From: Prorocentrum cordatum
Lineage: Eukaryota > Sar > Dinophyceae > Prorocentrales > Prorocentraceae
Length of the DNA: 64,000 nucleotides
Direction: 5' to 3'
NCBI GenBank assembly: GCA_963575745.1
Contig: CAUYUJ010002736.1
Location: forward strand, 381,995-445,994
Of the stretch, positions 22,125-44,874 are shown piece by piece (position 1 is the first letter of the stretch; each line of letters begins with the position of its first letter). The notes beneath the pieces were generated by a model. It made no database searches and was not told where the DNA came from. It saw nothing but the letters and a program-made list of their open reading frames with translations. A program made the position numbers and the translations under genes.

Positions 22125-22467
22125 AGTAAATAAGCTCCTCTCCGCCTCATAATCACTTGAGACATAACTTAGTTTGCATGCATCGCACTGTCCGCTGGAA
22201 CTGACAGATGCGTTCCGCAGCTGTATGACTGCTCGAGCAAGCCAACCTTGGCTTGCAGGAGAAAAAAGGAGTGCGCTGGGGCGTGCGGGCGGCTCGTCGT
22301 CGTCCGTCCCCGGCCGACCTCTTCCCTTTCGCATTCCTAATAGAGTAGTCTTGCTTAGCGGATACTTGTCTTATCAATGTCTCATCCCGTCCCCTCTCTC
22401 CCTGAGCAGAGTGAACCTGAGATCTTAATTCCTTTGTCATCTTACCCCGATTCTCAGAGGAAAGACT
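22125..22467 (+). repeat. 5' LTR
   Basis: Runs from AGTAAATAAGCTCCTCTCCG to TCAGAGGAAAGACT. It does not have the common TG...CA ends. It differs from the 3' LTR by about 15 changes, clustered at CACTTGAGA/CAATAAAGA, TTAGTTT/GATTTT and the CTTCCCTTTCGC stretch. Transcription should start within it, but I see no TATA box that I would assign. Confidence 0.93.
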
Positions 22468-22482
22468 GGTTATCAGCCGAAA
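22467..22482 (+). promoter_or_regulatory. Primer-binding-site-like sequence
   Basis: TGGTTATCAGCC begins at the last LTR base. It resembles the complement of an initiator Met-tRNA 3' end (TGGTATCAG) with one extra T. TGG pairs with the tRNA CCA end. Inferred from position and similarity. Confidence 0.6.
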
Positions 22483-22535
22483 CGCGCGACTAAGTCGACG
22501 CGGGGCCATCTCATACAAAAGAAGATCCTTCAAAT

Positions 22536-23711
22536 GTGCCCCGCGACTCAGTCGCTGCGGGAAGGAGCTATGATAAGACTGATATCGTGTCCAATATCTC
22601 GAGAAGCGCCGGTAGGCGCGTTGTGCAACGTGATGGACACGACGCAGACAGAGACGGTCCAGTTCAGGACCGAATCCCTCCTTCATACATCGCCACTCGG
22701 GTAGTGAGGGGAAGAAGTACCGAAGGGATAACCGAAATGTCGGTAGACGTATCTCCCGCGGGAGCTCCGACTGGTGATCGTGAGCAAACCCCGGGCCCGT
22801 ACGGGCGAGATGGCGTAACATCAAGACCTAGACGAAGTGCGTTTTCGTCATGGAGTGCCAGATCGACGGAGTCAATCAGCTCAATTCCGAACATTCCAAA
22901 CGCTACTGCTATTGCCGCTGGTGAAGCCGGCCGGCCAGGGGAAGTCCAAGGGAATGTGAATGCGTATCCTATTATCCCGACCGAATGGGTGGGCACGAGT
23001 GCCAACGTCCTAATCCCAATAGCACTTAACGGACAATTCGGTCAGGACAGTGATGGCCCTTTTGAAAAATATCATGGTGTATATTCCATGGAGGAAGATT
23101 TTGATAACATCAATAATGATATTTTCCTGAGCCGAGCACTGTCCGTGATGATGGAAGAAGACATCCCTGCTCAAGACGAAAGATGGTCCCCAGATGGATC
23201 CGATGAAGACACTAGTATCCTGACGCCTCAGGCGGACAGGGCGGATATCCAGATGAAGCATGAGAGGGAGTCCACAGGACGAACCCCCGCGCCTCACCTC
23301 AAGAAGCGACGGAATGAGGACTACGAGCTAAACGTCTCACCACTGAAGGAAGGTTTCTTCCGTAATGCCACCACCTCAGGTGATTGGCAACCCTCGATTC
23401 CAGCTGTTGTTGAGGATGAAGAAATGGTCGGACAACCAGCTACGTATGCTCAGCTAATAACACAAGACGAACAAAAGGATGAGGAGTTCTTAAATGCGCC
23501 TAAACCACCAGAAAGTACCTTCATTCGCCCCAGATCAAATGCTTCAAGCAGGGGAAGACCCAAGATACCAGGATCAGGGGCGAGATCTACTTCAAGGAGC
23601 AACAGTGCCGTTTCCATGATGGAGGCACGTTGGAACCCCAACGCTGACTGCGCGCCTCAGGCGGAGAGCAGATGCCCAGGAAAAAGCCAACAGGCCAGAA
23701 GGCGCATGTAG
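22536..23711 (+). CDS. Pre-gag ORF, 391 residues, unknown function
   Basis: A long open frame right after the PBS, ahead of gag. It is hydrophilic and acidic, with stretches such as EEDFDNINNDIFLSRALS and MMEEDIPAQDERW; no enzyme motif recognised. The first codon is near-cognate; the first clear ATG is in ITEMSVDV. Near 23640-23665 coding moves one frame over into a Cys-rich module, so the 391-residue product is probably truncated by an indel. It could be an N-terminal extension of the Gag polyprotein or a separate leader protein. Confidence 0.6.
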   Translation: MPRDSVAAGRSYDKTDIVSNISRSAGRRVVQRDGHDADRDGPVQDRIPPSYIATRVVRGRSTEGITEMSVDVSPAGAPTGDREQTPGPYGRDGVTSRPRRSAFSSWSARSTESISSIPNIPNATAIAAGEAGRPGEVQGNVNAYPIIPTEWVGTSANVLIPIALNGQFGQDSDGPFEKYHGVYSMEEDFDNINNDIFLSRALSVMMEEDIPAQDERWSPDGSDEDTSILTPQADRADIQMKHERESTGRTPAPHLKKRRNEDYELNVSPLKEGFFRNATTSGDWQPSIPAVVEDEEMVGQPATYAQLITQDEQKDEEFLNAPKPPESTFIRPRSNASSRGRPKIPGSGARSTSRSNSAVSMMEARWNPNADCAPQAESRCPGKSQQARRRM

Positions 23712-24204
23712 GAACCCAGCGTGCAAGAGTTGCTCGGACGTTTGCAATAAGTGCAACGTGCAATGGCTGTGCACGGAGCGTCACCCAATGGACGAGCATA
23801 ACTGCACGTATCTCCTCATACAGTCTATTCAGGACCAGGCCAGGCTGGCGGAGGCTAGCGCTCAGAGATAGTTTCTGACCAATGAAGCGCAGCTGGCCGA
23901 AAGGGCTCGGTTGGACAGAGAAGAAGTAACTGAAACTGTGGTCGAAGCTAGAAAAACGTTCGAGGCTGAGCGGGTCGCTCTAGCCATGGCTGCTAGAGAG
24001 CGGGAACAGGCGCTGATAGAACATCTGTATAATCAGACCGAGGCCGTCAAACGGCAAGTGGAGCGGGAAGCCGGAAACAAATGCGGAGAATTATTGACTT
24101 CGGAGAGACAGGCCGTCATGATGGCAAACCTGGAATCTGCCGACGCCAATGCGATTCCCGCCGCCGTCGCGGCGGCCAGAATAGAAGGAGGGCAAAGAAG
24201 ATAA
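23641..24204 (+). pseudogene. Pre-gag Cys/His module and coiled coil, in-frame TAG
   Basis: In the frame that starts GCA TGT AGG at 23704, cysteines and histidines fall as C-x4-C-x2-C-x3-C-x2-C-x5-C-x3-H-x4-H-x-C, a B-box-like zinc-binding pattern. A TAG at 23869-23871 interrupts, then the same frame continues as a helix-rich, charged segment (EEVTETVVEARKTFEAERVA) to the stop at 24202, likely a coiled coil. The layout (B-box-like finger then coiled coil) recalls TRIM-type assembly proteins, but this is only a structural analogy. Confidence 0.55.
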
Positions 24205-24879
24205 CCAACCAGAACAATCTCTATCTGGAAGAGCTCAAATCGCATGAAGAAGCTAGATCTTCCCTCCAGCGCATAAAATCGAGCAATGCTAAATGCCCGC
24301 CGGCTAAGCCGACTGGAACGAACATGCACCAGTTGTCGACGGTTCAGTCGTCTGGCATAGTACCCGTCCAAACGCAATTTGATCAGGCGACCTTGACAAA
24401 TGCGGGAGCATCGACCCTGCTGGTAGGAGGAGCAACGCATCCTCCTCCCGAGGAGAAGGGAACACGCAATCTCCGTGGATCAATTATGTGCCGTTTGTTT
24501 TCGTCTAAAGACGGACAAGTGCGTCGGATGTGGTAGGTCGGCGTGTGAAGAACATATCGATGCGAGCACCTGAAGATGCTGTAGATGCGACCTGTGGAAG
24601 AGTGAAAGATCAGCTGCCAACGTGCGAGATGAAGAAGTTGTTTCGGACGCAGCTAATACAGAGAAAGGAAAGATGAGGCTTGAGGCTATCATCACCGACC
24701 CGACTCCATATACTGAGAATAAACGAGAAGCCGGACTCACATCGAATTCATTCGGATTTCCATTGTTTTCGCAAGAAACTCCAGTGAGGCCGTTGTTGCG
24801 TCAACTTTTCACTATTCCAGGCCCTGCCCTAGAAGGTCCGGCGAAGCCGAGCGCCGCCGAGAACGGAGTTCCTGTATGA
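24190..24879 (+). pseudogene. Pre-gag second Cys-rich module
   Basis: From about 24190 the coding frame shifts (LYLEELKSHEEARSSLQRIK), and near 24480 it shifts back. At 24484 onward the frame encodes C-x2-C-x7-C-x2-C-x4-C-x2-H, then after an in-frame TGA (24571) C-C-x-C, another zinc-binding candidate. The frame ends with GPALEGPAKPSAAENGVPV at 24879. Function unknown; the two modules may be parts of one broken protein of about 780 residues from 22536. Confidence 0.5.
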
Positions 24880-24949
24880 GCTAACTTGACCTAACGAAGG
24901 TAAGACTCTCGCCAGGTACCGCCCATCCTATGGAGACGGTGCTACGGGA

Positions 24950-25165
24950 ATGACGACGACCATGTCGTCGGGCGAAGCAGGGCAGGGCGGAGAAGGAGAC
25001 GACAAGAGCGACGCTCCTAACGCTGAGATCGTATCTTCACATGAAGATGATCGTGGTAAGAGACCACGTGGGTCGCCTCCGGGGAGCCCAGGGGTTCAGA
25101 CCCCTCTGATGGCGGGGGTGGGTGCAGGGGGCCTCAGGGCCCCGGCGGACCGCGCGACTCGGTAG
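24950..25165 (+). CDS. Probable start of Gag (71-residue frame)
   Basis: ATG at 24950 begins a Gly/Pro/Asp-rich segment. The next frame, open from before 25138, continues RDSVVIDESTPLDQW into the main Gag frame. A shift at 25085-25140 probably separates the Gag N terminus from its body. Confidence 0.5.
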   Translation: MTTTMSSGEAGQGGEGDDKSDAPNAEIVSSHEDDRGKRPRGSPPGSPGVQTPLMAGVGAGGLRAPADRATR

Positions 25166-26730
25166 TAATTGACGAAAGCACGCCGCTGGATCAGTGGAGA
25201 CAGGTTGGTAACAACCAGAAAATTGATTTGTTGGACATCCCTGATGTGAACATTCGTGAGTGGACAATGCACGCAGCACGCGCAGTCGCTGGATCATCGC
25301 CCGAGAGCCAGGCAGCACAGCACTGGATTGCTGAGGCCATGGATCCAGCTGTGGAGGATGAGCAACTCAAAGATGCAGGACGATTCCAGCGTCTCGACCT
25401 CATGATCGCAACGAATCTTATCGAGAAATTCAACAAGATGCGAAATAATCGATATCAGCCTGGTAATCATACTCATTTCCTCCAACAGATTACTCGCGTG
25501 GAATTCAGCGCCCAGAACGAGGGAAGACTCATGACTGGACGCGAGATGGTGCGAGCAATTTGTCATTGGTGTTCGGTAAGATCGGAGTTGGGACAACATC
25601 GCATTTCGCGTGACCTCTTCAAGGTGATCATTGACCCGCACAAGCCCAATGCTGACCTGTATCATTTCTACAATGAATGGACAGATGTGCATCGACAGCT
25701 TTATGGCGCTAAGCCTCCCTCCGATGAGATGAGGGCCTCGATTCATGCGCACTTTCTCGAACAATGCAGAAAGCCGAGCAAACTGAACTTTGTATGCCAG
25801 TTATACGACTTCTCGAAAGATATAATGGGACATGGCGTAAAGAGTTATGAATGGCTGATGGAGCAGATTGAAGAAAAGATGTTGCGAGAAAAAGACGAGT
25901 GGAACATCAGCGTGCATGAGGGCACCTTGAATCAGCGTGCTAGGCAAGCACGGTTCGGCGGGGGCGGAGGCAATGATAACCGGAAGAATGCAGGCAGCAA
26001 AGCCGCCCCGGCGGAGATTGCTGCTAAGTTGGGGGGTGGGCCCTCAGTTGTCATGACGAGCGGAAAGACTAAGGGCGAGACCACGTGCAGATACGTGCAC
26101 AAGGGCGAAATTTGCCCGCACGCAGGACAGGGCTGCCCCTTCAATCCTAAGAAGCCCAAGAATGCCGCGCCGGCTCAGCCGAGTGCGGGACGAAAATCCA
26201 GTGCCGCTCCTGCCCAGGATAAGAACCCTAGAGGGAGATCGATGGACAGGGGCCGTAAGGGGCAGGGCCGATCCCAGACCCCGACTGGCAACCGTGGGAA
26301 AGGAGGACAGCAGAAGAATAGAAGTCAATCGCGTGGGAAAGACAGTACCATACCGTGTTACGCATACTCCCGAGATCCCAAGAATTGTCGAGGACCAGAA
26401 GACGGATGTGACAAAGCCCATAGAGGGCTATCCGATGCTGAGAAGCTGAAGCGTGACAAGTGTGAACAAGCGAGACTTGACGCTGGACAATATTTGGGAT
26501 GTGGGCGTGCATCCAAACAGGCCAATGCTGCCGCTGCCAATATCTCTTCGACGGGAAGCAATGATGGCTCCAGATCCCCTGGCGCTAATTCCGACAAGCG
26601 TAAGAAGGAGGGAGAGAAAAACAAAGGCGGTGGCAAAGGCCAAGACATGGTCTGCCGCCCCTACACGGAAACGGGAGAATGCTCACGCGGAAAGGAATGC
26701 TGGTTCGCTAAGACCACTCCAGTCACGTGA
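25138..26730 (+). CDS. gag: Gag with three CCCH-type zinc fingers
   Basis: The N-terminal ~230 residues are helix-rich (capsid-like region, no exact family match claimed). The C-terminal half is basic, Gly/Arg/Ser-rich and carries three fingers. Numbered from 25228, they are C287-x8-C296-x6-C303; C377-x9-C387-x6-C394-x3-H398; and C476-x8-C485-x5-C491. Only the middle one keeps the final His; the first has Pro and the third Lys nearby. CCCH fingers in place of CCHC knuckles are, as far as I know, common in dinoflagellate copia-like Gag proteins. Expected role: packaging element RNA. Open for 500 residues, so the best-preserved ORF of the element. Confidence 0.8.
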   Translation, partial: GPGGPRDSVVIDESTPLDQWRQVGNNQKIDLLDIPDVNIREWTMHAARAVAGSSPESQAAQHWIAEAMDPAVEDEQLKDAGRFQRLDLMIATNLIEKFNKMRNNRYQPGNHTHFLQQITRVEFSAQNEGRLMTGREMVRAICHWCSVRSELGQHRISRDLFKVIIDPHKPNADLYHFYNEWTDVHRQLYGAKPPSDEMRASIHAHFLEQCRKPSKLNFVCQLYDFSKDIMGHGVKSYEWLMEQIEEKMLREKDEWNISVHEGTLNQRARQARFGGGGGNDNRKNAGSKAAPAEIAAKLGGGPSVVMTSGKTKGETTCRYVHKGEICPHAGQGCPFNPKKPKNAAPAQPSAGRKSSAAPAQDKNPRGRSMDRGRKGQGRSQTPTGNRGKGGQQKNRSQSRGKDSTIPCYAYSRDPKNCRGPEDGCDKAHRGLSDAEKLKRDKCEQARLDAGQYLGCGRASKQANAAAANISSTGSNDGSRSPGANSDKRKKEGEKNKGGGKGQDMVCRPYTETGECSRGKECWFAKTTPVT

Positions 26731-26895
26731 CAATGGCTCCACACTGGCGGCTCAGCCGTCAGTGCTGGAGGAATGATAAACATAATGTTATCAATGGTCT
26801 TCTTTATTGCCGTCCTTGTCTGCAGGCGTGGCGAAGCCTGCGTCGGTTGAGCAGAAAGCGGGGGGGGTTGGAAGAGACCCGCTGATTCAATCATA

Positions 26896-27480
26896 TTGGG
26901 CGCCGTCGCGTGCCCCGCCCCATTATTTCGGGGCCTCCCAGGGCAGAAGCAAAATAGCCCTAAATTTTTGATTGTTGCATCTAATGCCGATGGAGGAGAC
27001 TATTGGGTCACCTCCAAAGGTGAGTTTCACCGAGACAGCAGGAAACAGGTCGAGAGTCTCGTCAATGTCCTTGCCAATTTCCTGCGCCCTCTTTCTCGGG
27101 GCGCGATCAAGAAGTGCTGGCGCGTCCCCCCTAGTAAGAGTTGCATGCGACATCAGAACAGTAACCGATGCAATCTCCGTGTCCGTATTCACCCCTCTAT
27201 TGAGGAGCCGACTATCACTTGGAGGAAGGCGCGTCGCCACGACTTGAAAGAGTTGCCTTCAATTAGCAAAGATAGATGGACGTTCCCAGGAGAAATACGC
27301 AGACAGATGTCGATACAGTCGAGGGCATCTGTCGCTGAAGCTCTAATCAGAACATCAGACCTGCAAGCTCATGTCTGGCATCTCTGGTTGAAGGACGAAG
27401 GGGGGGGGGGGGGGAAGGCCCGCACGGCTCGGCCGCTGCTGGATGCGCAGACAAAGACGCTGCGTATCTGGGGGCGTTGA
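26896..27480 (+). CDS. Open frame between Gag and protease, doubtful
   Basis: A 194-residue plus-strand frame with no recognised motif. It passes through a 14-G run at about 27391-27404 that encodes poly-Gly and is a likely site of length error. The protease frame is the next one over, starting around 27440. It may be the Gag-Pol linker read partly out of frame. Confidence 0.3.
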   Translation: MGAVACPAPLFRGLPGQKQNSPKFLIVASNADGGDYWVTSKGEFHRDSRKQVESLVNVLANFLRPLSRGAIKKCWRVPPSKSCMRHQNSNRCNLRVRIHPSIEEPTITWRKARRHDLKELPSISKDRWTFPGEIRRQMSIQSRASVAEALIRTSDLQAHVWHLWLKDEGGGGGKARTARPLLDAQTKTLRIWGR

Positions 27481-27956
27481 GCTTCATTATAGATATTGGG
27501 TGCGGGTGCAACCTAATTGCGGAGAAATACATTAGGAGCGCAGGTGCAATGATATTGATTCGAAAGCTTCCGCAATCGATCACTCTGAACACTGCTGGGG
27601 GGGGGTCTAAGGCCCTCGGTTCAGTTCGCATCGCGTGTCCCAAGTTTAAGGGTGGTAGTTTTAACGCTTTACTCACGCAGGAGACCCCGTGCGTGATTTC
27701 GGTGGGAGAGCGGTGCATGGATCGCGGATTTAGTTTCTTTTGGCCAGCAGGCCAAAGGCCCTTTTTATTGTTGCCCAACGGCCAAAGAGTGGACCTGGCC
27801 ATTGAGGGCAAGATACCATACTTGACCCTATCAGGCAAGGAAGCGCTGGGTAAGTGGATGCGCGCGGCTGCCGCCGGAAGGAGTGAGCCCCCCGAGCGGT
27901 GGTGTTGCGTGACGCCGGGCGCCAGGGCATTCTTGGACAACGTGGAATCGGCGTGA
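27477..27956 (+). CDS. pol: Retropepsin-like aspartic protease
   Basis: FIIDIGCG near the N terminus matches the protease active-site motif D-T/S-G, here D6-I-G, so the usual Thr is replaced by Ile. About 65 residues on, TPCVISVGERCMDRGFSFFW and LLPNGQRVDLAIEGKIPYL fit the C-terminal half seen in dinoflagellate copia-like polyproteins (from memory of the family). The frame ends with TGA at 27954 but continues open in the same frame into integrase, so this stop is probably a point mutation (CGA to TGA). Role: processing of the polyprotein. Confidence 0.75.
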   Translation: MSFIIDIGCGCNLIAEKYIRSAGAMILIRKLPQSITLNTAGGGSKALGSVRIACPKFKGGSFNALLTQETPCVISVGERCMDRGFSFFWPAGQRPFLLLPNGQRVDLAIEGKIPYLTLSGKEALGKWMRAAAAGRSEPPERWCCVTPGARAFLDNVESA

Positions 27957-29510
27957 GGCCTTCCGCCCCATGCTGTCCATACTCGCGTAACCATAGACCT
28001 GCACACACATGAGCTGATTGGTACCCACCGCTGCGCTGATGGGCGGCCGACTGAGATCGCGCCCGCTTTCCCGTCTTCGATAGACTCTGCGGATACCATC
28101 ACCTACTTCTACTATTCGCCTCAAGTGGCCAGCGAATGCGGCTGGAACCGGACGCCGACCGGTTTTGCTGCCTCTAAAAGTCTTCCAGTTTTGCCCGACC
28201 ACGGTCAAGCCGTCGGTCCATTCGACGAGCAGCGCGGCAAAGCCGAGGCTTGCGCTGCCGCATACAGATGCCATTACGGATACGGAGTTTCAGGATACCT
28301 CCCGTACGAAGGAAGTAGAGGACTGGACTCTAGCGCGTGCAACGCGGCCCCAGGACCCGAGGAGGGCGAGGTTGGAGACGCTGACGGCGTCGACTTAGTC
28401 GACGTCGACGCACCGCCAGATTTAGACCCAGACGTTGCGGAGGTTGAGGTGTCGGAGACCCTTGCCGAGCGGCTCAAAAAGGCTGCAGCCTCCTTACCGC
28501 ACCTTCTAACTCACACTCCCAAGAAACCATATTGTCCAGTGTGCAACTGGGCCAAAGCTATCAGAAAGCAACAGCGCAAAGCGCAGAACAAAGGGCTAAA
28601 GGTTCCCCGCCCATACGCTAACCCCACTTCGTTCGGACAACTGACGACGATGGATCATTGGTTTGCGATGGGTGAACTCTCGCGGGGACTCCATGATGAG
28701 ACCGCGCGTGTGACTTTTCGCGACCGAGCTACGGATTTTCTCGCCGCTCAGGGTGTACACGACAAGTCTGCGGTTCGCGTTTGCAACTTTTTAGTGAGCC
28801 TGAGAGCCCCGGAGGAAAAGTTAGAATATTGTTATGCAGATGGTGCAAGAGAGCTTGCGAGGGCATGTTACGAGCTCAATATTGCCCATGATCCTACCAC
28901 CCCAGGAAATAAGAAACAAAATGCTGCCGCTGAGCGTGCGATCGGTGTCGTGCAGATGGGAGCCAGAGCCTTACTCATGCAGGCTGGTCTTCCACCACCA
29001 TATTGGACCTACGCAGTTCGATATTTCTGTCTGTGCTACAATACTAGGACCCCCGCTGAAGGGCAGTCCAGTTGGGAAAGACGCTTCGGATGCCAGTTCA
29101 ATGCTCCGCTTCTTTCCTTCGGATCACTTGTCCGTTATGCGCCCCCACCTGAATCCCGGTTTCGCACCGCCAAGACTGGCGCGTCGATGATTCCAGAGAT
29201 ATACTTGGGGTATGTGCACAAAGCGGGGGGATTGATCGGACCAGATAGTTACGTTATACCTCTGAGACAATTGGACGGTCTGAATATGGAATCAGGGCGT
29301 ACACCAGAGGGAAAACGACCTACGATCGAGAAGTCCGATCAAGTGTACAGCAACATCTTAGATGGTACTGCTGATTACCAATCGCCCCAGTTTCCCTTGC
29401 GAGAAGCATACGAGAAAGCGGCGACAGAGGTGCGTTCCGTCACAATCCTTACAGAGAGACAGGAGAAGTTGCGGCCGTCCCAGACGGACCACAGCCAGGC
29501 ACAGGGATAA
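27957..29510 (+). CDS. pol: Integrase (HHCC and DDE)
   Basis: Open from 27957 in the protease frame. Numbered from 28125: H126-x3-H130-x6-C137-x2-C140 is the HHCC zinc-binding domain. The catalytic core shows D177 (TTMDHWFA), D239 (CYADGARE) and E270 (NAAAERAIG). A region like the copia C-terminal GKxxP module follows (RFGCQFNAPLLSFGSLVRY, then IYLGYV). All catalytic residues are present. Placed before RT, it defines the Ty1/copia order. Coding shifts frame near 29440-29465 before the formal stop. Confidence 0.88.
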   Translation, partial: GLPPHAVHTRVTIDLHTHELIGTHRCADGRPTEIAPAFPSSIDSADTITYFYYSPQVASECGWNRTPTGFAASKSLPVLPDHGQAVGPFDEQRGKAEACAAAYRCHYGYGVSGYLPYEGSRGLDSSACNAAPGPEEGEVGDADGVDLVDVDAPPDLDPDVAEVEVSETLAERLKKAAASLPHLLTHTPKKPYCPVCNWAKAIRKQQRKAQNKGLKVPRPYANPTSFGQLTTMDHWFAMGELSRGLHDETARVTFRDRATDFLAAQGVHDKSAVRVCNFLVSLRAPEEKLEYCYADGARELARACYELNIAHDPTTPGNKKQNAAAERAIGVVQMGARALLMQAGLPPPYWTYAVRYFCLCYNTRTPAEGQSSWERRFGCQFNAPLLSFGSLVRYAPPPESRFRTAKTGASMIPEIYLGYVHKAGGLIGPDSYVIPLRQLDGLNMESGRTPEGKRPTIEKSDQVYSNILDGTADYQSPQFPLREAYEKAATEVRSVTILTERQEKLRPSQTDHSQAQG

Positions 29511-30646: not shown

Positions 30647-31485
30647 ATATATGTCGTCGTGACAAAGAAAGATTTGATTTGCAATGCTTCTATAATCCAT
30701 TTACTGATTTAGTATCCGTCATTGATGAACCCTCCCAACTTCCCAGTGACTGGCATTGTGCCCGCATAGATGCCGCTGTTGCCAGATCTGTCTCGACAGA
30801 CCAGGCCAAGGCAAACAAAGACGCTCAAGCTGCCTTGAGGAAAGAGCGGGACAGATTGCGCGACATTGGCACGTGGATAGAGGATGGTGTTCGAGAATAT
30901 TCCGATGTTGTTGCCGAACCCAAAGGGAAAATAGCCCATTTTGGCAGTTTATTTGCGATCCTTGTTGAAAAGAACTCAGATTTGCCGCTAGGACACAAAG
31001 ACCGTAAGTACAAAGGACGGGTAGTCTTTGACGGTTCAAGTGTCAGAGATCAATTCAAGGACGCGGCATTATTTCAGGAACTTTCCAGCAGCCCCGCGAC
31101 CATGCAGGCCAGCAAAGCAGCTGATACCTACGGGCTGTTTGAATGCCATAGCATCGAACAAGCTGATGCTCGACAAGCTTGCACGCAGTCGAAATTGGGA
31201 GGCACTCCTACTTGGGTTTTCTTGCCTCGCGACGAATGGCCCACAGCATGTTCCAACATGCGGAACCCCGTATGTCCACTGTGCTTATCGCTGCGCGGGC
31301 ACCCTGATTCGGGCGGACATTGGGAACAGCATTGTGCGGGACATGTCACGGCGAAAGGCTTTGTGAAATGTAGCCCGTGGCGTAGCTGTTATCACCGCAA
31401 AGAAATGCAAATCTTCTTGATCATCTATGTCGATGATTTCAGACTGTCGGGACCTGCCGACAAGCTAGCCCAGGGATGGAAGTGA
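30647..31485 (+). CDS. pol: Reverse transcriptase (Ty1/copia type), fingers and palm
   Basis: RVVFDGSSVRDQ, the stretch with QADARQACTQ (motif A), and QIFLIIYVDDFRLSG (motif C, Y250-V-D-D numbered from 30679) identify an RVT_2-type RT. Sequence around 31230-31380 looks partly out of frame (Cys-rich CPLCLSLRGH instead of motif B), so a local pair of indels is likely. A TGA at 31483 ends the frame, but the same frame stays open past it (RPTAVGRYLGCEH). Confidence 0.8.
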
Positions 31486-35416: not shown

Positions 35417-35422
35417 GGAACG

Positions 35423-36727: not shown

Positions 36728-36969
36728 ATATAATGTACATCGGCGGGGACTCGAAGTGCTGGCAAGAAGGCGATAGCGGCGTCGGTCCGATGTGGGACGA
36801 TGTTGCCACTATGGTCCGAGCCAGAATGAATCGTCGGATTGAACACTACAAAACAATAGGACTGTTCCCCAGAATAATGATCCTTGACGGTGTCAGCCTC
36901 TACCGCCAGCTTAAGCACCGCCCAGGGGACGTTTTCCATTACAGTGCTAGCCACCAGGACTATGAGTGA
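36715..36969 (+). CDS. Post-pol ORF D2: SGNH-hydrolase-like, C-terminal part
   Basis: One frame over from D1, reading DFLDIMYIGGDSKCWQ, then RIMILDGVSLYRQLKHRPGD and FHYS. D66 and H69 (numbered from 36733) in D-V-F-H fit the block V catalytic Asp-x-x-His. A second GGDS occurs at residues 4-7. D1 and D2 together have the order Ser, Asn, Asp, His expected for one SGNH domain split by a frameshift. Confidence 0.5.
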   Translation, partial: GDFLDIMYIGGDSKCWQEGDSGVGPMWDDVATMVRARMNRRIEHYKTIGLFPRIMILDGVSLYRQLKHRPGDVFHYSASHQDYE

Positions 36970-38674
36970 GGAATCGTTGACCGATAAAGAGTTCCCAGCC
37001 GTTTCAAACGGGACTGGAGGTGGCGCTATACACTCGTTTCGTTTTATTCAAATGAATTTAAAGACTTCCTTGAAAAGGGGGCTGCTTATGGTGATTTCTT
37101 CCCATGGACGGATGATGCTCACTTTTTGCCCCGCGGAGAAATCTTCTGTCCTGGAATGCTATCAGAGGGAAAGACCCAGAGACCGGCGACAGGGAGTGCA
37201 AAACGATGAGCCAATGCGTGCTGCACCCAAAGAATTCAACAAAGCAGCGCCGACGGTGATACCGAGCGGCCTAGCTGTTTCGGCGAGTAGTGCAACGCCA
37301 GGTGGCATAGCGGCCCCTGTATTTACTGAAGTATCGGCCGGGCAACCCGGCGCTGTTACTGCGACCGATAAGCCCAAACCCGTCGGCCCAGCCGACGCGG
37401 GCTCTGGTTCTAGCGCGAGAACGGCTCAATCACCGCGCGCCCTTCCGCTGGCCCCTCCAACCAATGCCAAAGAAATCGAGACACCTGGGGGAACAGCAGA
37501 AATAACCATCCGTGAGAAATGCCCGGAGGGTAAACTGTCTAGGCTCAGTAAGGACTACAAGTTTCCGAGGAGGCAGAAAGATGGATGCCCTGGAGAGGTG
37601 GATTTTTTTTGGCCGTACCATCAAGATTATCAGCAGATGAAGAATCTGCTTGTAAAAGATGCAAAGACAGGAAAGATTACTCATTCTGACTTCCTTTGCC
37701 CATGTACGGTTGCCAGCGGCAAACTTCACCGGGGTATGATGCCTTTTAACGCATGCCCTGGGGAAGAGGGACGTGCTGCTGAGATCGCCGAGGGAAGAGA
37801 GCCTGCTCAAAGCTGGCAACGGAAAAAGATTCTGGAAGATGGTAATAGCCAAGCGTGGCTTGCCTACCAGATGCTTCAGGAGACGACGAGAGTTCCGCCG
37901 ATGACACGGAACTATCTAGTGCCGAACTGGGCTCGTTTCTCCAGGATCAAAGCAGATAGATCGGTATCAAAGCGGACAGCCACAGTGGCTGACCGCTTGA
38001 ATTTGGCCCAGAGGACGACATCCCATAGAGTTGGCAAAGCTCACTGTGTTGAATTATCGTTGCCTTTCTTCGTAACAAAAGAGAAGCTTGCGGAAGTCTC
38101 AGACTCATCCGCCGGGTGGTCAAAACAGTCACATGGTACGTCAGTGACTACCCTTCATGCTGCTTTGGAGGGCCATCAATTGCTTCCATCAAATCCCAAA
38201 TACGGTGGAAGCGTGAAAACAAATGTGGTTGGGGTGTATTCATTTCCGTGTTCTGACAATCCCAACACTCACACCACGTACTCCATTGCGGAGGAGACCT
38301 TTGGAGATGGCATTTGGGTCACGGCTGAGATTGTCTACTATGCCAAGACGACAAAATCCGTTAAAGGATCACCGATCCAGTACGTGAGTAATCCAGAGAC
38401 TGATGTTTTATGCGAGTTGAGACTCTATCATTGGGCCGCAGCAGCACTGTGGGGTACTGATGCGTGGACACATTTGCTGCATATTGCCAGAGATAACAAA
38501 GGGAACCTGGAAGTGGACTTTGAGTTCGAAAGGTATCGAGATCAAGATCGGACTGAAGCCGCGGACAAAGTCCGGGATGCTCAAAAGGCCTGGGTCCCAG
38601 GCTTGACTTCTATCGAATGGCAAAAGGGAGAGAGCCCCTATTTGAGGGGCCAAGGCGAAACAGACGAAGATTAA
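36962..38674 (+). CDS. Post-pol ORF E: large protein with ART/PARP-like HGT...GVY pattern
   Basis: ATG at 36962 overlaps the stop of D2 by 8 nt. About 570 residues: a disordered Ala/Pro-rich region to ~190, a Cys-containing domain (HSDFLCPCTVASGKLHRG), then H391-G-T-S with Leu and Gly ~12 residues on and G-V-Y426-S-F, spacing reminiscent of the His and Tyr of ADP-ribosyltransferase/PARP folds. A third catalytic residue is not certain (candidates around ELRLYH). This is a pattern match by eye, not a homology claim. Ends DED-TAA. Confidence 0.45.
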   Translation: MSEESLTDKEFPAVSNGTGGGAIHSFRFIQMNLKTSLKRGLLMVISSHGRMMLTFCPAEKSSVLECYQRERPRDRRQGVQNDEPMRAAPKEFNKAAPTVIPSGLAVSASSATPGGIAAPVFTEVSAGQPGAVTATDKPKPVGPADAGSGSSARTAQSPRALPLAPPTNAKEIETPGGTAEITIREKCPEGKLSRLSKDYKFPRRQKDGCPGEVDFFWPYHQDYQQMKNLLVKDAKTGKITHSDFLCPCTVASGKLHRGMMPFNACPGEEGRAAEIAEGREPAQSWQRKKILEDGNSQAWLAYQMLQETTRVPPMTRNYLVPNWARFSRIKADRSVSKRTATVADRLNLAQRTTSHRVGKAHCVELSLPFFVTKEKLAEVSDSSAGWSKQSHGTSVTTLHAALEGHQLLPSNPKYGGSVKTNVVGVYSFPCSDNPNTHTTYSIAEETFGDGIWVTAEIVYYAKTTKSVKGSPIQYVSNPETDVLCELRLYHWAAAALWGTDAWTHLLHIARDNKGNLEVDFEFERYRDQDRTEAADKVRDAQKAWVPGLTSIEWQKGESPYLRGQGETDED

Positions 38675-38678
38675 TGCG

Positions 38679-39677
38679 ATGATATCTGGCCTTGGCTCCA
38701 AGAAAGGAGTCAGACTGACCAAGATCCACGCGATGCATAGGGGCGAGGCCTCGGGAAGATCAGTTCAGTTGTTTGAGCAGAATAGACAGGAGAAGGAAAG
38801 GGCAGCTGAAGAGGACGAAGAGGAGCCGGCGGCTAAGCCGCCCGGCACTCCGTTCTCAATTGATAAATAGGATGTTCCCGACCTAGGAAAGGCATCTGCG
38901 AAGCCAGAGAGGACCTACAAAGCGCCGCCCCCTAGGGCTGCCAGTCGGCCCCCTGTTCCTAGGCCTCCCCCTCTTGGTGGACCGACAGAAATTCCCGCCA
39001 GGAAGGCCCCGCCGGCGGTTCATACTCCAACGAACCCTCCGGACCATCGGCCGAATCTCACTAGGCAGGAACATGCTCCACCTGCGAAAGAGATTTCTCC
39101 CAGGAAGGCCCCTCCACCGAGGCTCGATCCCAGGGCGGGGGACTTAGGTCAACCGCCAGCGAAGATGCCTCGATTCGATGGAGACCCCGCTGCGCCTATG
39201 ACTGCCCGGCCACCGGCTAAGTCGAGTGGCGCAGACGCAGTTGGCAGCGGGCCTTGGAGGCCGAGTGTTCGTGACCCCCCGCCCAAATTAAACATATTCA
39301 TCGGGGCCAATGTTTCTGGCTCCCCGCCTGTGGCTCAGAGCCCTCAGGGAAATGAGCTTCGCCCCAAACAGGCGCCCTCCAAACGGGCGCCCAGTTGGGC
39401 CAGACACCGGGGCGATCCGCCTCATATCGAAGGCAATACCACGGGTGAACGGTCCCAGCCAGCGCGCGCCCCACATGCCAAGGCGAAGGCTGCCTCAGCT
39501 GAAGCTGGCGCTCCTGGAAGAGATGGAAACGACGATCTATTGGATATGCACGACGCAAACCCCGCGGCTCAGTCGGACGGGGATCATTCATCCCAGGATT
39601 CGCCTAATTTGGAGGGGAACGATGACACTACTTCTATCTTTACTAACACTAAAAGAGGTTTCATGTATGCATTTTGA
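38679..39677 (+). pseudogene. Post-pol ORF F: Pro-rich disordered protein, in-frame TAG
   Basis: ATG at 38679, five bases after the stop of ORF E. One frame stays open to 39677 apart from a single TAG at 38868-38870. Rich in Pro, Ala, Arg, Lys (RKAPPAVHTPTNPPDHRP). Contains hairpins at 38829, 39213 and 39564. No domain. Confidence 0.5.
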
Positions 39678-39705
39678 GCTCCGAGAGCCAGATCGGCGTT
39701 GAGAA

Positions 39706-40300
39706 ATGTTTTTTTACCGCTTGAAAGGGCTGCGATCGAGTGCACACGACGCCCCAGCCGAAACTCTTCCGATGAAAAGGTTCAGAGTTGTTGCTGCATC
39801 ATACATTAAGACAGCAAAAAGTGTTTATGATATAAGCATACAAGACGAACTAGAGGAGCTGAACACATATTCCGCTGCATGGATGCATTTGCTGATGCTA
39901 TCGTCGAAGAGATTTTAAAATGGGACAATAATTGTGCGCGCACTCCGATGGTAGCGGAGAGACCTCGGTGGTCAAGACGTAAAGAGGCAGGTGGCTTTGG
40001 GACGAGTAAGATCAGAGTGCAAACTCCTCCTGCCCCTCCGTCCGGCTCAGCTGCGACGGAGAACCCTCCTATACCTCCGCCCGGCTCAGCTGGAGCGGAA
40101 TAAGAGAGACGCCATGAGGCGCAGAAAGAACCATCGAGTCCAACACAAGTGCCGTCAGACGAAGGGACAACACATGTTCCCAAGCATGCAGCTCAGCCTC
40201 CACCGGGGGCCTCAGGCCACCCGGAGATCCATGAGACGGACACGGGAACGGGGGACTTTTGTACACGTGCCCATACGATAATGATCCCCAGTTTCTAGAG
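39706..40300 (+). pseudogene. Post-pol ORF G, frame-broken
   Basis: Starts ATGTTTTTTTACCGC; reads MKRFRVVAASYIKTAKSVYD, then shifts at about 39880 to DAFADAIVEEILKWDNNC. A TAA at 40099 interrupts, after which the same frame continues acidic/Pro-rich (EAQKEPSSPTQVPSDEGTTH) to about 40297. Two hairpins (40036-40061 and 40076-40098) supply PPSGSA and PPPGSAG. Unknown function. Confidence 0.4.
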
Positions 40301-41168
40301 CCGATGGATGACGAGACTTTTCCGTTCGGGCCGGCATCCGCGAATATGTTTCGCAGATCGAGTCTTCCACCTGCTCCAGAAAAGAGACAGGGTCAGCCGA
40401 CATACAGGGGCCCTACCGATGGGGATCGAGACGTCACAGTGGGGCATGCTGCTGTATTTGAAGAAAAAACGATTGTATGTGACAACACAAGAACGCCAAC
40501 ACATACTTCGGGTTACGCCTGGACCTCTAAAGCAGATGCTCCAGGACGCCCACATTACGGGCCCCGTACCACCACACATCGAAGCCATCCGCAGTCGAAC
40601 AGGAATTACGCTTCGATATATGGCAGAAGTTCGTGGAAGACCCAATATTTGCAATATTGGGGGGCCTCAAACAAAGGATTACATTAGAGCCGAGTTTCAT
40701 TCCGATGACGTTCCAGACGGGCTTACTCCTAGAGCCTGCGCGTGTCTGCAGCCACTTATAGTTGGAGACGATAATGGTGAGAACCCGGCTGCCTTAGGCC
40801 ACTCGGACACTTGGAGTGGCCTGAGTTACAGATCGGATGTATTGGCCAAAAAGATAGGCCGGTGTGCTGTATACATCGCGAGGCACTGCTCCGACTACGC
40901 TAGATCGTCGGGGGGCTGGGTCTACTTTGGAGACCTGGTGCAGAAACTAAAAGATGATGGTTTTACTTTCCAGTCGTGCGCCTTGGCCGCGCACAGCTTA
41001 GCTGCGTCGCCGTCAGGGACGGTCGAGGTTTTAGGAATCTTCCCCAATGATAGTCCCAAGATTGTTGGAACACAAATCAACGTCATGTGGGGGCAACGTA
41101 AGAGGGGCTCATTGCAAGAGGAGAACGGGAGGAAGATGCCGATACCCATATTCTATAGGGCGTGCTAG
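40259..41168 (+). CDS. Post-pol ORF H: possible KptA/Tpt1-like winged-helix segment
   Basis: The likely path is the frame from 40259 (FLEPMDDETFPFGP) to about 40440, then the frame open from 40308 to 41168. Residues 181-260 of the latter have an Arg-His segment (VYIARHC), G-G-W-V-Y-F-G-D-L-V-Q-K-L and a following basic tail. This resembles the N-terminal winged helix of RNA 2'-phosphotransferases (LSYxLRH...GWxxxxxLL). The catalytic ART half was not found. Weak, by-eye similarity only. Confidence 0.35.
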
Positions 41169-41461
41169 GGACATTCAGCGTTCGCTGCTTCAATCGAAAG
41201 AATGTATGTCCCGTACGACCCTGGCCAAGTCAGAAGTCACGGCTCTCTTCATATTACAGACTTGCAGACATTTTTGGAATTTACGAGTGGACATGTTCGC
41301 TTCCCGAAGAGCGACTCTGGGCTTTGCCATGCCGCAGATTGCGAATTGTTGCGTTTGCTTCCGGCACACAATTGCTCAACTATGCCTAATCCCTTAGATT
41401 TTCTCCGTGGCTAAGCCAACGGAGATATGGGCAGCCACTCATTCCGAGAACTCTAGTACCC
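41169..41461 (+). other. Short coding-like remnant between ORFs H and I
   Basis: Frames such as MYVPYDPGQVRSHGSLHITD (41202-41411) are open but short and overlap in several phases. It is probably a frame-broken tail of ORF H. A strong hairpin lies at 41403-41424. Confidence 0.35.
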
Positions 41462-42895
41462 ATGAACAACCCAGCTCAGGAATGGGAGCCGCCATCGGTG
41501 GGTACTTGGCCCGCAGACGACACCCACCACCTATGGCCGCGTCTCCCCAATCTCAATCACAATGAGCAGTGGGATATTATTCTTGTTTTTACCAGTAGAG
41601 TGCTCACCCGCTTTTCGCGCAGAGTTTGCCCAGATGGGACCTTGGTGCCCCGGGAAGTGCCGAAATTCACAGACATCGACAAAGCCGTCTCCCTTGTGAG
41701 ACAGGCAGATCAGATGCGCTGGACGGTACTCTTCGACCGCGAATTGTCTTCATACGAGGTCACCTTCGACAATGAGTCGGTTATTGCCTGGGTTCATACA
41801 GACGAGAGACTAATCATTGATTGGAATCACAGGCCAATATTGGAGACCGCGATCCAACATCGAATTGTATCCATCCCGTGGGATGATGAAGGGAGATTCC
41901 TGTGTTGCCGATGCCACTGGGTGAGGACAGGTTTTGCCAGCTGTCCTGTCTGTAATTGTCCAGTCAGATACAAATACAGGGTCACACACGATTACATGAC
42001 CCAGACATGGAAGCACAAAATTATCCCGCAGTCCCTTGAGGCACGCGGCATCTTCATTGCAGTGGACTATGAAGAAACTCTATCATGTAATCGCCACGAA
42101 TATATACAGGCGCGGATAAAGAGGCAGGGGAGAGCTTCTGCCAATGTTACAAGAAACGTCAACAACAACAATCAGCAGGAGCGAAGATGGGCCTCCGGGC
42201 AATTTGCTACAGTGGCGGCCGCTAGCACGATATTTGGCAATAGCCAGCCTGGAAATCTTCCAGCTTGGATCCCAGAACACGCCGAGGCTCAGCCTCCGGC
42301 GCGACATGCCCCTTTCTTCCAATATTTGAAGCCTTTGGTCAAGAGATTTATATCGTGGCTGGAACATTCGGCCAGAAACGTAAGAGGGCAAACTCCGCCC
42401 AGTAATACCGGGTGGCCGAGATTGTGGGGAACTGAGTTTGACCAATACGCTCGCCCGAGATCCTGCCCAGCCGCACAGGCATTTCATTGGCCTGATGAAG
42501 AGGATGACTTAGTCACTCCTCGACTCGGCTGGGAAAGATGGTTCAACAACATGACTAGAGCCAGCATCTTCGTTCCGACACTTGCTACAGTAGATGACGC
42601 GGTAGAGTTTGGCAGACCTTGGTTCGGCGTATTGATTGAGGAGCATGGAAACAACGCCGACAGCGCCAACCCTCCCGCGAGGTTACCAGTCGCCTGGGAG
42701 AACAATTTTAGGGCGAGGCCGACTCGCAGTTCTCAGTCTGTTTCAACACGGATTAGCATGTGTCGGGACCATCGTCTTATTCTCCCCGTATTGCGACATG
42801 CCACCGGCGCAGCCGCGATGGCACGCGAACAGTCACAAATGGATTTGGATATCAAAGCGATCAGCGGGCCTAAGGCCGCGTTGATAACTGACTGA
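41462..42895 (+). CDS. Post-pol ORF I: 477-residue protein with zinc ribbon
   Basis: ATG start, fully open. The N-terminal ~140 residues look folded (WDIILVFTSRVLTRFSRRVC). C148, C149, C151 and C161-x2-C164, C166 form a zinc-ribbon-like cluster. The middle is Asn/Gln-rich, with a hairpin at 42280-42301 coding AEAQPPA. The C-terminal ~180 residues include LGWERWFNNMTRASIFVPTL. No family recognised. Its intactness, next to broken neighbours, makes it a good candidate for a real product. Confidence 0.65.
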   Translation: MNNPAQEWEPPSVGTWPADDTHHLWPRLPNLNHNEQWDIILVFTSRVLTRFSRRVCPDGTLVPREVPKFTDIDKAVSLVRQADQMRWTVLFDRELSSYEVTFDNESVIAWVHTDERLIIDWNHRPILETAIQHRIVSIPWDDEGRFLCCRCHWVRTGFASCPVCNCPVRYKYRVTHDYMTQTWKHKIIPQSLEARGIFIAVDYEETLSCNRHEYIQARIKRQGRASANVTRNVNNNNQQERRWASGQFATVAAASTIFGNSQPGNLPAWIPEHAEAQPPARHAPFFQYLKPLVKRFISWLEHSARNVRGQTPPSNTGWPRLWGTEFDQYARPRSCPAAQAFHWPDEEDDLVTPRLGWERWFNNMTRASIFVPTLATVDDAVEFGRPWFGVLIEEHGNNADSANPPARLPVAWENNFRARPTRSSQSVSTRISMCRDHRLILPVLRHATGAAAMAREQSQMDLDIKAISGPKAALITD

Positions 42896-42957
42896 TTTTT
42901 CACTCTTGACCATTCTGAGGGACACGTATAACTGACGGATTTTTCACTCTTCACCCT

Positions 42958-43548
42958 TTGATCAAAATAACATTGGTCGGGAGAGAAGTTCGAGAAATTG
43001 CTGCCCATTGCATAATAGAACACACGGGATTACATCCTACTAACCCCGGCAGGGTTACCCTGACCGGAACGGCAGAATACGTGATCCCGGAGATCATCCA
43101 GACCATAGTGGATGACAGTTGGTTAGTACCAGTACAACACATGCAACTGGGCCTTCGGCCCATAAGGATTTTCGCAATTGTTCGTGAGATAATCAGCTAT
43201 TTCATATCGGAAGATCACTTTATTGGTTACCCGGGGCGAATCATTCGTCCCGAAATGGTGAGCACGGATGAAATTGATTCAAAGAAACGGACCGACGAAT
43301 ATGCCTTGGACGGCCGCATTCGCGCGGCTGTTAAAACGGACGATATCATAGAAGGGTGGGCGCACAAGATGGGCAGGAGAGTACAGAACGACGTCCTTTG
43401 CCACGGTGCTCTAATACAGGGCGCCATTTCTTGGCTACAGGATAAGTACCCTGACCCTGGTGCCGAACTTCAGGACAAAGAAGAAGACCTTTCCGCACTG
43501 CATGCGGAATATATGGTGCCGCTGCAGCAACTGCTGCCAGAAGTATAA
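42958..43548 (+). CDS. Post-pol ORF J, 196 residues, unknown
   Basis: Open frame starting near a TTGATCAAAATAAC sequence (near-cognate or ATC start; no early ATG in phase before the middle). Mixed helix/strand composition (YVIPEIIQTIVDDSWLVPVQ). The stop codon overlaps the next start as TAATG. A duplicated word ACTGACKGATTTTTCACTCTT lies just upstream (about 42888 and 42932). Confidence 0.55.
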   Translation: MIKITLVGREVREIAAHCIIEHTGLHPTNPGRVTLTGTAEYVIPEIIQTIVDDSWLVPVQHMQLGLRPIRIFAIVREIISYFISEDHFIGYPGRIIRPEMVSTDEIDSKKRTDEYALDGRIRAAVKTDDIIEGWAHKMGRRVQNDVLCHGALIQGAISWLQDKYPDPGAELQDKEEDLSALHAEYMVPLQQLLPEV

Positions 43549-44249
43549 TGCAATTTATGAACGATCGTAGAAATAACGATCCTGAACACGACGGCGAAGC
43601 CGAAATCGCGGGGCCACATGCGCCAGCTGGACCAAAGGCCAGATCTCCATCGCGCCCGCCGCCTCTTCGACCTGACATCTCAGACGCTCAGGTATCCGAA
43701 GAAGCTACTGGATCCCCCCGTTCAGTCGCCGGCTCAGCCGTGACGATCAGGGAGACAAACCCACAACATCCCAACATGGGGGATCGGTCGGAATCACAAC
43801 GCGTGCGCGATGCTGCCATGGATGCTGCCGCTAGCACTGACATGGATGCTGCTGCCGGCGCTGCCATGGACGCTGCCGCGGGCGCAGCCGCGGATGCTGC
43901 CAGCAGCGATGCAGGCCACAGCTATGAGTACGACCCTTCCAGGTCCTACCCGCGCTACGTGGACGGAACCCTCGTCGGGTACTACATCCACCGGAACAGG
44001 GTCACGTGGCTTACCGACGCTGAGTGGTACACTCTGAATTACTGGCACCAGCTATTAAAATGGGAGCACGACTTCCACTTCCCGCCGAGAGGGGCGGCAC
44101 CGATGAGCGACACTGAAAGAGAAAGAGGGCGATCTCGCACGCCTCGTGGCGTAGACGCACAGACGGGAGGATCGGCGCCGTCAAATCCGCCGCATCCGGC
44201 GCCGCCCAGACGAGAGAACGAGCACAATCCGTGGAAGGACCTGAACTGA
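43548..44249 (+). CDS. Post-pol ORF K, 233 residues, Ala-rich repeats
   Basis: ATG at 43548 shares its A with the TAA of ORF J (TAATG), a termination-reinitiation type junction. The N-terminal half is disordered, with three to four MDAAA-type repeats (43818-43905). A C-terminal globular piece (YYIHRNRVTWLTDAEWYTLN) and a basic SR/RERGRSRTPRG tail follow. Last ORF before the 3' LTR. Confidence 0.55.
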   Translation: MQFMNDRRNNDPEHDGEAEIAGPHAPAGPKARSPSRPPPLRPDISDAQVSEEATGSPRSVAGSAVTIRETNPQHPNMGDRSESQRVRDAAMDAAASTDMDAAAGAAMDAAAGAAADAASSDAGHSYEYDPSRSYPRYVDGTLVGYYIHRNRVTWLTDAEWYTLNYWHQLLKWEHDFHFPPRGAAPMSDTERERGRSRTPRGVDAQTGGSAPSNPPHPAPPRRENEHNPWKDLN

Positions 44250-44526
44250 GTTTCGCCCGCGTGACTCAGTCGCGGCAGGCGCATGCAAAACAATTTACCC
44301 ACGCGCGGAACGCGCGTTGGGCGCGGACACCTCTACTGGTCGGCTAGGCCAGTCCAGCGGAGAGAATTTGTTTATCACAATGGTGGGAAACGTAGAGCCT
44401 CTTCGGCCCTTGGCCCCCTGGCAGCCACCGTTGAGCTGTAAAAGCTTTTTCGGGTTGGCTCCGGTGGTTGTGCAAATGTACAGGCCGGGGGTGCTGTGGC
44501 TGTATGGGCTCTACGCGGCCCGCCGC

Positions 44527-44532
44527 GGGGGG
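44527..44532 (+). promoter_or_regulatory. G6 tract before 3' LTR (polypurine-tract candidate)
   Basis: GGGGGG directly precedes the AGTAAATAAG start of the 3' LTR, where the plus-strand primer is expected. It is shorter than most polypurine tracts. Confidence 0.5.
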
Positions 44533-44874
44533 AGTAAATAAGCTCCTCTCCGCCTCATAATCAATAAAGACATAACTGATTTTGCATGCATCGCACTGTC
44601 CGCTGGAACTGACAGCTGCGTTCCGCAGCTGCATGACTGCTCGAGCAAGCCAACCTTGGCTTGCAGGAAAGAAAAGGAGTGCGCTGGGGCGTGCGGGCGG
44701 CTCGTCGTCGTCCGTCCCCGGCCGACCTCCTCCCTCCACATTCCTAATAGAGTAGTCTTGCTTAGCGGATACTTGTCTTATCAATGTCTCATCCCGTCCC
44801 CTCTCTCCCTGAGCAGAGTGAACATGAGATCTTAATGCCTTTGTCATCTTGCCCCGATTCTCAGAGGAAAGACT
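44533..44874 (+). repeat. 3' LTR
   Basis: AGTAAATAAGCTCCTCTCCG to TCAGAGGAAAGACT, 342 bp, direct repeat of 22125-22467. Confidence 0.93.

What the first reader, a model, noticed from the sequence alone, without database searches (positions are those of the whole stretch)
22125..44874. 22.75-kb copia-order LTR retrotransposon with ~11.5 kb of extra genes behind pol
LTRs, 5-bp target duplication, PBS-like site and Ty1/copia domain order are all visible, yet the element is several times the usual size because of a coding tract of at least ten ORFs between RNase H and the 3' LTR, plus a 2.4-kb pre-gag tract. Post-pol genes in copia elements are normally absent or a single env-like ORF. A cargo of this size is unusual and may represent an undescribed lineage.
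Basis: partly seen in the sequence, partly recalled or inferred. Interest (0 to 1): 0.9.

Follow-up and report, generated by a model that had tools for sequence, protein, structure and literature searches.

The report
Giant jumping gene with DNA-methylase-like domain
A dinoflagellate-like genome carries many copies of an unusually large virus-like jumping gene, about 23,000 bases long, whose enzyme-coding stretch runs on into a long extra tract that includes what looks like a DNA-methylating enzyme.

Summary
Window 22125-44874 is a 22,750-bp LTR retrotransposon: 343/342-bp LTRs, 5-bp target duplication, PBS-like site, order gag-PR-IN-RT-RNase H. The 11.5-kb tract behind RNase H belongs to it. 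Four other copies in the same 4.13-Gb genome were read from LTR to LTR with that tract (one lacks 1.3 kb of it); of 11 same-strand LTR pairs found with the LTR alone, 9 (window included) span 22.5-24.4 kb. A methyltransferase-like and a distal region recur as 35 same-strand pairs, 34 of them 6.8-9.7 kb apart (0.02 expected). The 'ten ORFs' are mostly decay: over nine sequences the frame runs from pol to one shared stop (44247). Likely plan: a gag ORF of about 1,400 codons including the 'pre-gag' tract, an in-frame TGA, and a pol ORF of about 5,800 codons. The first post-RNase H domain has motifs and a modelled fold like C5-cytosine DNA methyltransferases (no PF00145 match; Foldseek not significant); a published survey says Symbiodinium copia elements lack such a domain. 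The distal domains are unidentified. Judged a new variant of a known kind.

The parts
22120..22124 (+). 5' copy of the target-site duplication GATAC
22125..22467 (+). 5' LTR (AGT...ACT)
   Evidence: 40 scored LTR places in the genome, this one included
22468..22478 (+). primer-binding-site-like GGTTATCAGCC; primer tRNA not identified
   Evidence: present in 4 of 4 other copies read
22494..26727 (+). ORF1: 'pre-gag' plus gag (CCCH-like zinc finger near its end), broken by frameshifts in this copy
26728..26730 (+). in-frame TGA between gag and pol; TGA in 6 of 8 sequences, TGG and CGA in the other two
26731..44246 (+). ORF2: pol plus post-pol tract, about 5,800 codons as a continuous frame across copies, frameshifted in this copy
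27480..27830 (+). protease region (DTG in several other copies, DIG here at about 27492)
   Evidence: motif read by eye, Asp_protease_2 E 0.073 in one copy, below cut-off
28480..29400 (+). integrase (HHCC-like zinc motif, DDE-like motifs)
   Evidence: motifs read by eye, no Pfam match
30650..31600 (+). reverse transcriptase (YVDD)
   Evidence: (RVT_2 E 0.049, below cut-off)
32200..32760 (+). RNase H, read by eye
   Evidence: P0002 joins the same RNase H end to the next domain in one ORF
33517..34240 (+). C5-cytosine-methyltransferase-like domain: motif I EYCCGPxS (about 33565), PC (33745), IEWP (33916)
34610..40230 (+). middle of the post-pol tract, unidentified; about 270 bp present in other copies are missing here at 36963/36969
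40300..41165 (+). distal region with relatives in an EukProt transcriptome labelled Pyramimonas sp.
41390..44246 (+). distal end of ORF2, unidentified; cysteine-rich motif near 41.9 kb
44247..44249 (+). stop codon of ORF2, TGA in 8 of 8 sequences read there
44524..44532 (+). short G-rich run (CGCGGGGGG) before the 3' LTR, a polypurine-tract candidate; the run of G is in 6 of 6 sequences read, window included
44533..44874 (+). 3' LTR
44875..44879 (+). 3' copy of the target-site duplication GATAC

Best explanation
This is one decayed copy of a high-copy, giant, copia-order LTR retrotransposon. SHOWN: a unit of about 22-24 kb with LTRs, TSDs and a fixed internal order recurs in the genome; its coding is a gag ORF (about 1,400 codons), an in-frame TGA, and a pol ORF that does not end after RNase H but runs on for another 11.5 kb to one shared stop; much of the extension has evolved under constraint on its protein; its first domain has C5-DNA-methyltransferase-like motifs and a modelled fold of that type. 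INFERRED: the genomic RNA starts in the 5' LTR and is translated to Gag and, by passing the TGA (readthrough or re-initiation), to a very large Pol polyprotein that the element's protease cuts; copying goes through tRNA-primed reverse transcription in particles and integrase-made 5-bp staggered insertion. The methyltransferase-like domain, carried with RT and RNase H, most likely methylates the element's cDNA or new insertions, so that the DNA passes as host DNA or is tolerated. The remaining distal domains probably serve particle, RNA or host-interaction functions that I cannot name.
Against: No DNA_methylase (PF00145) match. Foldseek itself gives no match at E<=0.001 and ranks the rRNA adenine methyltransferase RlmJ first, with beta-carbonic anhydrases among the next rows; VIA-align only re-examines Foldseek's own list. 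RVT_2 is below cut-off. The frame labels were derived from the same ORFs, which favours few stops in that frame. 25 of 48 block windows, among them 7 of 7 between 38549 and 40228, show no codon-position bias at p<0.01. One of ten sampled places lacked distal sequence, one LTR pair is only 16.6 kb and one 66.9 kb. Some places are near-duplicates of each other, so insertions are fewer than places. Every copy read has stops or frameshifts. No expression, methylation or transposition data. The distal model is useless (pLDDT 32).
Confidence: 0.85

Rival explanations
1. Chance composite: an ordinary copia element plus a separate element or host DNA caught between its LTRs.
For: Size is far above usual; this copy sits in a simple-repeat array and is decayed.
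Against: Same block, order, strand and spacing in many insertions, several with their own TSDs and different flanks.
Confidence: 0.01
2. The tract is a set of separate accessory genes behind pol, each with its own start, rather than one extended pol frame.
For: The window shows many ORFs; every copy read has stops or frameshifts; internal starts cannot be excluded.
Against: No stop shared by more than two of nine sequences in the voted frame between 26731 and 44246; ORFs of 1701 and 1369 aa cross several supposed gene borders. P0002 fuses RNase H and the methyltransferase-like domain in another source.
Confidence: 0.1
3. The methyltransferase-like domain is not an active DNA methylase but an RNA methylase or a structural remnant of the fold.
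For: No PF00145 match; motifs deviate (SMPCxGGSPW; IEWP instead of the recalled ENV); Foldseek's first rows are RlmJ. C7825 has PPRQ for SPWQ.
Against: VIA-align has DNA C5-methylases in all 50 listed rows; Cys and Glu of the catalytic type kept in 10 and 11 of 11 loci scanned.
Confidence: 0.3
4. It is an endogenous virus-like element with an extracellular phase, the distal tract coding for particle or entry proteins.
For: Size, giant polyprotein and unidentified distal domains recall Burro, for which the review passages seen discuss integrated proviruses.
Against: No envelope or capsid match in the Pfam, PHROGs and PDB sequence searches made.
Confidence: 0.12

Closest known systems
Ty1/copia LTR retrotransposons (Pseudoviridae), including dinoflagellate copia elements
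   Same: LTRs, 5-bp TSD, PBS-like site, order gag-PR-IN-RT-RNase H, YVDD
   Different: 22-24 kb instead of the usual 5-10 kb (usual size recalled); pol frame runs 11.5 kb past RNase H; the survey seen in passages says Symbiodinium copia elements lack a DNMT domain
Burro giant gypsy-like LTR elements of planarians (PMC6431247, passages)
   Same: Over 20 kb internal region, thousands of copies, enormous polyprotein (4,873 aa) with extra domains
   Different: Gypsy order (PR-RT-RNase H-IN); other extra domains (apoptosis, ubiquitin-related), placed elsewhere in the polyprotein; animal host
SymbioDIRS-Dnmt3 and SymbioLINE-Dnmt of Symbiodinium; DNMT retrotransposons of Klebsormidium (PMC5890265, passages)
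   Same: Retroelements, in Symbiodinium those of a dinoflagellate, carrying a C5-methyltransferase; in SymbioDIRS it lies within Pol
   Different: SymbioDIRS use a tyrosine recombinase and SymbioLINEs are non-LTR; that survey counted genes by PF00145, which does not match here; here LTRs, DDE-like integrase and a far longer tract
Ogre LTR elements of plants (passages)
   Same: Giant LTR element, 16-25 kb
   Different: Size mostly from LTRs of 1.9-6.5 kb and an 11-13 kb internal region; here LTRs are 0.34 kb and the extra is coding

Membership tests
LTR retrotransposon | Two direct LTRs bounding the unit with a short target-site duplication | tested here: met
   Window and 5 other copies: 4 of 6 TSDs exact (window and C7825 lie in simple repeats), 2 of 6 with one mismatch
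LTR retrotransposon | PBS after the 5' LTR and polypurine run before the 3' LTR | tested here: inconclusive
   Conserved PBS-like and G-rich sequences; primer tRNA not identified
Ty1/copia (Pseudoviridae) | Integrase upstream of RT-RNase H | tested here: met
   Order read by eye from motifs in the window and in ORFs of copies
Ty1/copia (Pseudoviridae) | RT matches the copia RT profile RVT_2 | tested here: inconclusive
   E 0.049, 13.7 bits against cut-off 31.6; other RT ORFs scanned gave no match
Ty1/copia (Pseudoviridae) | RT groups with Ty1/copia in a tree | not tested
Burro / giant gypsy elements | Gypsy order PR-RT-RNase H-IN | tested here: not met
   IN motifs precede RT
DIRS with DNMT (SymbioDIRS-Dnmt3) | Tyrosine recombinase and split A-B-A-B repeats | tested here: not met
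   Simple LTRs with TSD; DDE-like integrase motifs read, no tyrosine recombinase match in Pfam scans
C5-cytosine DNA methyltransferase | Class I methyltransferase fold of the C5-DNA type | tested here: met
C5-cytosine DNA methyltransferase | Motif IV Pro-Cys and motif VI Glu | tested here: inconclusive
   PC and IEW in 10 and 11 of 11 loci but surrounding motifs deviate; superposition of these residues not seen
C5-cytosine DNA methyltransferase | Match to PF00145 | tested here: not met
   No match; so filed only as methyltransferase-like
C5-cytosine DNA methyltransferase | Enzyme activity | not testable with these tools
   -

The most novel reading that the evidence does not exclude
A separate lineage of giant copia-order elements in which pol has grown into a polyprotein of nearly 6,000 residues with a divergent DNA methyltransferase module that marks the element's own cDNA, plus several enzyme or host-interaction domains of unknown type: in effect a virus-sized, self-methylating retrotransposon that helped inflate a 4-Gb dinoflagellate genome.
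Probability: 0.35. Interest if true: 0.85.

Novelty: new variant of a known kind. Interest (0 to 1): 0.72.

Why it matters
Giant LTR elements with long coding extensions are described for gypsy-type elements such as Burro; this is a copia-order counterpart with small LTRs. It adds a further retroelement type carrying a methyltransferase-like domain to those known from dinoflagellates, one that a PF00145-based survey would miss. Dinoflagellate genomes are huge, and the Symbiodinium genomes studied are heavily methylated, so an abundant element that may methylate itself makes the question of who writes that methylation testable. It also warns that many predicted short genes in such genomes may be fragments of one giant polyprotein.

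Tried and rejected
Rejected: nested composite. No short parental form with the same LTRs was seen: the one short same-LTR pair (16.6 kb, C20069) is an internal-deletion derivative lacking window 32582-38654, with exact TSD AAGAG. The 66.9-kb pair (C8335) was not examined and may be two elements. A stop at 25057 shared by 6 of 7 sequences was considered as an ORF border; it is out of the frame of ORF1, which single ORFs of 5 copies cross there.

Led nowhere: by eye, an SGNH-hydrolase-like stretch (about 36.2-36.95 kb and the part missing here) and a Tpt1/KptA-like stretch (40.8-41.2 kb) suggested themselves. Neither has support: no Pfam, PHROGs or PDB-sequence match and low-confidence models there; I do not claim them. 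The model from A2 was only informative for about residues 20-260, so other parts are barely tested by the fold search. No relatives in viral contigs for the methyltransferase or integrase ORFs. ORF 36881-38671 had no protein-database match. A genome-contig scan failed for lack of conserved stretches and was not repeated. The host is probably Prorocentrum cordatum, by assembly size and contig number only (4.13 Gb, 21,875 contigs here; 4.15 Gb, 22,724 scaffolds in PMC10666404); not proven. The Pyramimonas label of P0006 and P0010-P0012 may be contamination by a dinoflagellate.

Not reached: search of the own genome with the integrase ORF for related elements lacking the tract (not completed).
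Full report
WHAT WAS CHECKED. The finding describes a 22.75-kb LTR retrotransposon at 22125-44874. Repeat search and direct reading confirm it: LTRs 22125-22467 and 44533-44874, 327 matches, 15 mismatches and one gap column, ending AGT...ACT, flanked by GATAC on both sides. The insertion lies in a TAC-type simple-repeat array seen on both sides. The PBS-like GGTTATCAGCC follows the 5' LTR (also in 4 of 4 other copies read) and a run of G precedes the 3' LTR (6 of 6 sequences read, window included).

CODING. Coding potential is on the + strand from about 22.5 to 44.2 kb, in changing frames. By motif, read by eye, the order is gag with CCCH-like zinc finger, protease, integrase, RT with YVDD, RNase H. 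Pfam support is weak: zf_CCCH_4 E 0.012, zf-CCCH E 0.053, RVT_2 E 0.049, all under cut-off, and no integrase or RNase H match.

OTHER COPIES. The window's own genome (4,128,499,153 bases, 21,875 contigs) could be searched. With the ORF just behind RNase H, 106 matches were scored out of 10,328 first-look candidates: the window itself, one copy in two pieces, and 103 further single matches, so 104 other places at 69-90% protein identity; some are near-duplicates of each other, for example C12125 and C16591. Six places were fetched over the whole expected element, chosen for high score or long open frame. Four (C13833, C8513, C14513, C7825) have both LTRs and the post-pol block, 21,730-24,096 bp; C7825 lacks window 36969-38303 of it. 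C12125 has the block and 3' LTR but no match upstream of window 24949 in what was fetched; C4 is interrupted at window 36857 by a second, related copy (lengths). Two more divergent copies, fetched downstream only (C16115, C8890), have block and 3' LTR. TSDs: exact in the window, C8513, C7825 (in a simple repeat) and C20069; one mismatch in C14513 and C13833. Their flanks differ, so these are separate insertions. LTR divergence within copies is 0.024-0.055 (K2P, 5 copies including the window).

IS THE BLOCK USUALLY THERE? To reduce choice, ten methyltransferase places were taken by rank (every tenth of the list, from rank 12) and 1.5 kb was fetched at the expected place of the distal ORF: 9 of 10 carry element sequence in the expected orientation (8 reach into the distal ORF region, one is already at 43783-44874 plus LTR, so a shorter copy); 1 of 10 (L035) has none. 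A search with the 5' LTR alone scored 40 of 1,226 candidates. Eleven contig-strand groups hold two: nine, the window among them, span 22.5-24.4 kb, one 16.6 kb, one 66.9 kb. The 16.6-kb one lacks window 32582-38654 and keeps the distal part, so it is a deletion derivative. A search with the distal ORF 41390-42892 scored 86 of 2,708 candidates. The LTR matches within 40 kb on the same strand lie 2.8-3.5 kb downstream (10) or 19.1-21.3 kb upstream (9) of distal matches. All scored lists hold only best candidates, so the real copy number is unknown.

ONE FRAME, NOT TEN GENES. ORFs of the copies, placed on window coordinates, overlap across the supposed gene borders; for example a 1701-aa ORF of C7825 runs from RNase H through the methyltransferase region beyond window 36962, and a 1369-aa ORF of C8890 covers 33766-37637. 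Nine sequences were used, window included; between 5 and 8 of the eight others align at the ten points checked. With reading-frame labels voted from their ORFs, in-frame stops occur at 110 sites, 106 private to one copy and 4 shared by two. In the block behind RNase H no site has a stop in half or more of the copies, against 124 and 196 such sites in the two shifted frames. The labels come from the same ORFs, which is partly circular; the bridging test is less so: 1411 of 1445 points are crossed by single ORFs of at least three copies, 21 by two, 3 by one, 10 by none. The points with none or one are 26745-26775, 38265-38415 and the end near 44205. At 38.3 kb no labels were assigned, but single ORFs of five sequences (C14513, C13833, C12125, C16115, window) span the place. 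At 26728 a TGA stands in frame between gag and pol in 6 of 8 sequences (TGG and CGA in two); at 44247 TGA stands in 8 of 8. A stop at 25057 is shared by 6 of 7 sequences but lies outside the ORF1 frame, which five copies cross there. Hence the likely plan: ORF1 to 26727, TGA, ORF2 from 26731 to 44246.

CONSTRAINT. In the block, 23 of 48 windows of 240 bp show a codon-position bias of differences at p<0.01, and all 23 peak at the third position of the frame path found. These lie at 33.3-34.2, 34.9-38.5 and 40.2-43.3 kb. The other 25 do not reach p<0.01, among them 7 of 7 between 38549 and 40228, a proline-rich stretch. Much of the extension has therefore been kept as protein.

THE REST. The distal region has three relatives at 53-63% identity in a EukProt set labelled Pyramimonas sp.. 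No family matched convincingly; the model of the distal 715 residues is not usable. Its function is open.

HOW IT PROBABLY WORKS. Standard LTR retrotransposition with a giant Pol. The TGA between gag and pol would set the ratio of Gag to Pol by readthrough or re-initiation (inferred). The methyltransferase-like domain sits next to RNase H in the same frame, so it would be delivered with RT into particles; the survey of DNMT retroelements suggests that DIRS cDNA is methylated on copying and that this may keep it from being recognised as foreign, and the same is the best guess here. That survey states that Symbiodinium copia elements lack a DNMT domain (passage).

LITERATURE. Searches were seen as listings; passages were seen in PMC5890265, PMC6431247, PMC11453091, PMC10449503 and PMC10666404. 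None of these listings or passages describes this element. The library lacks most subscription papers, so this is not proof of novelty.

Noticed in passing
window 20000-22124 and 44880-46000: TAC/CTA-type simple-repeat arrays on both sides of the element; the element seems to have split one array. C7825 also sits in a simple repeat (CTC); the four other copies whose flanks were read (C14513, C13833, C8513, C20069) do not.
   Followed up: partly
window 7578-13469: Three long ORFs (547, 766, 747 aa); the first matches Exo_endo_phos (E 1.6e-05, above cut-off), so perhaps a non-LTR element with an endonuclease.
   Followed up: partly
window 2839-4374: Tandem array with a period of about 73 bp seen in self-comparison.
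   Followed up: no
window 18532-20144: Direct repeats of about 540 bp, 88-93% identical, related to 5983-6343.
   Followed up: no
window 14185-14827 and 56987-57627: Inverted copies of about 640 bp at 83% identity.
   Followed up: no
L041-L042 (C20069:108958-125522): Deletion derivative with both LTRs and exact TSD, lacking RNase H end to 38.65 kb; possibly mobilised in trans.
   Followed up: partly
L024-L026 (C4): One copy broken at window 36857 by a second, 77-84% identical copy of the same family, which itself has about 3 kb of other sequence near window 31.9 kb.
   Followed up: no
window 36963/36969: About 270 bp present in 6 of 6 other copies aligned there are missing from this copy.
   Followed up: yes
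P0006, P0010-P0012: Relatives labelled Pyramimonas sp., a green alga; either contamination by a dinoflagellate or a wider host range.
   Followed up: no
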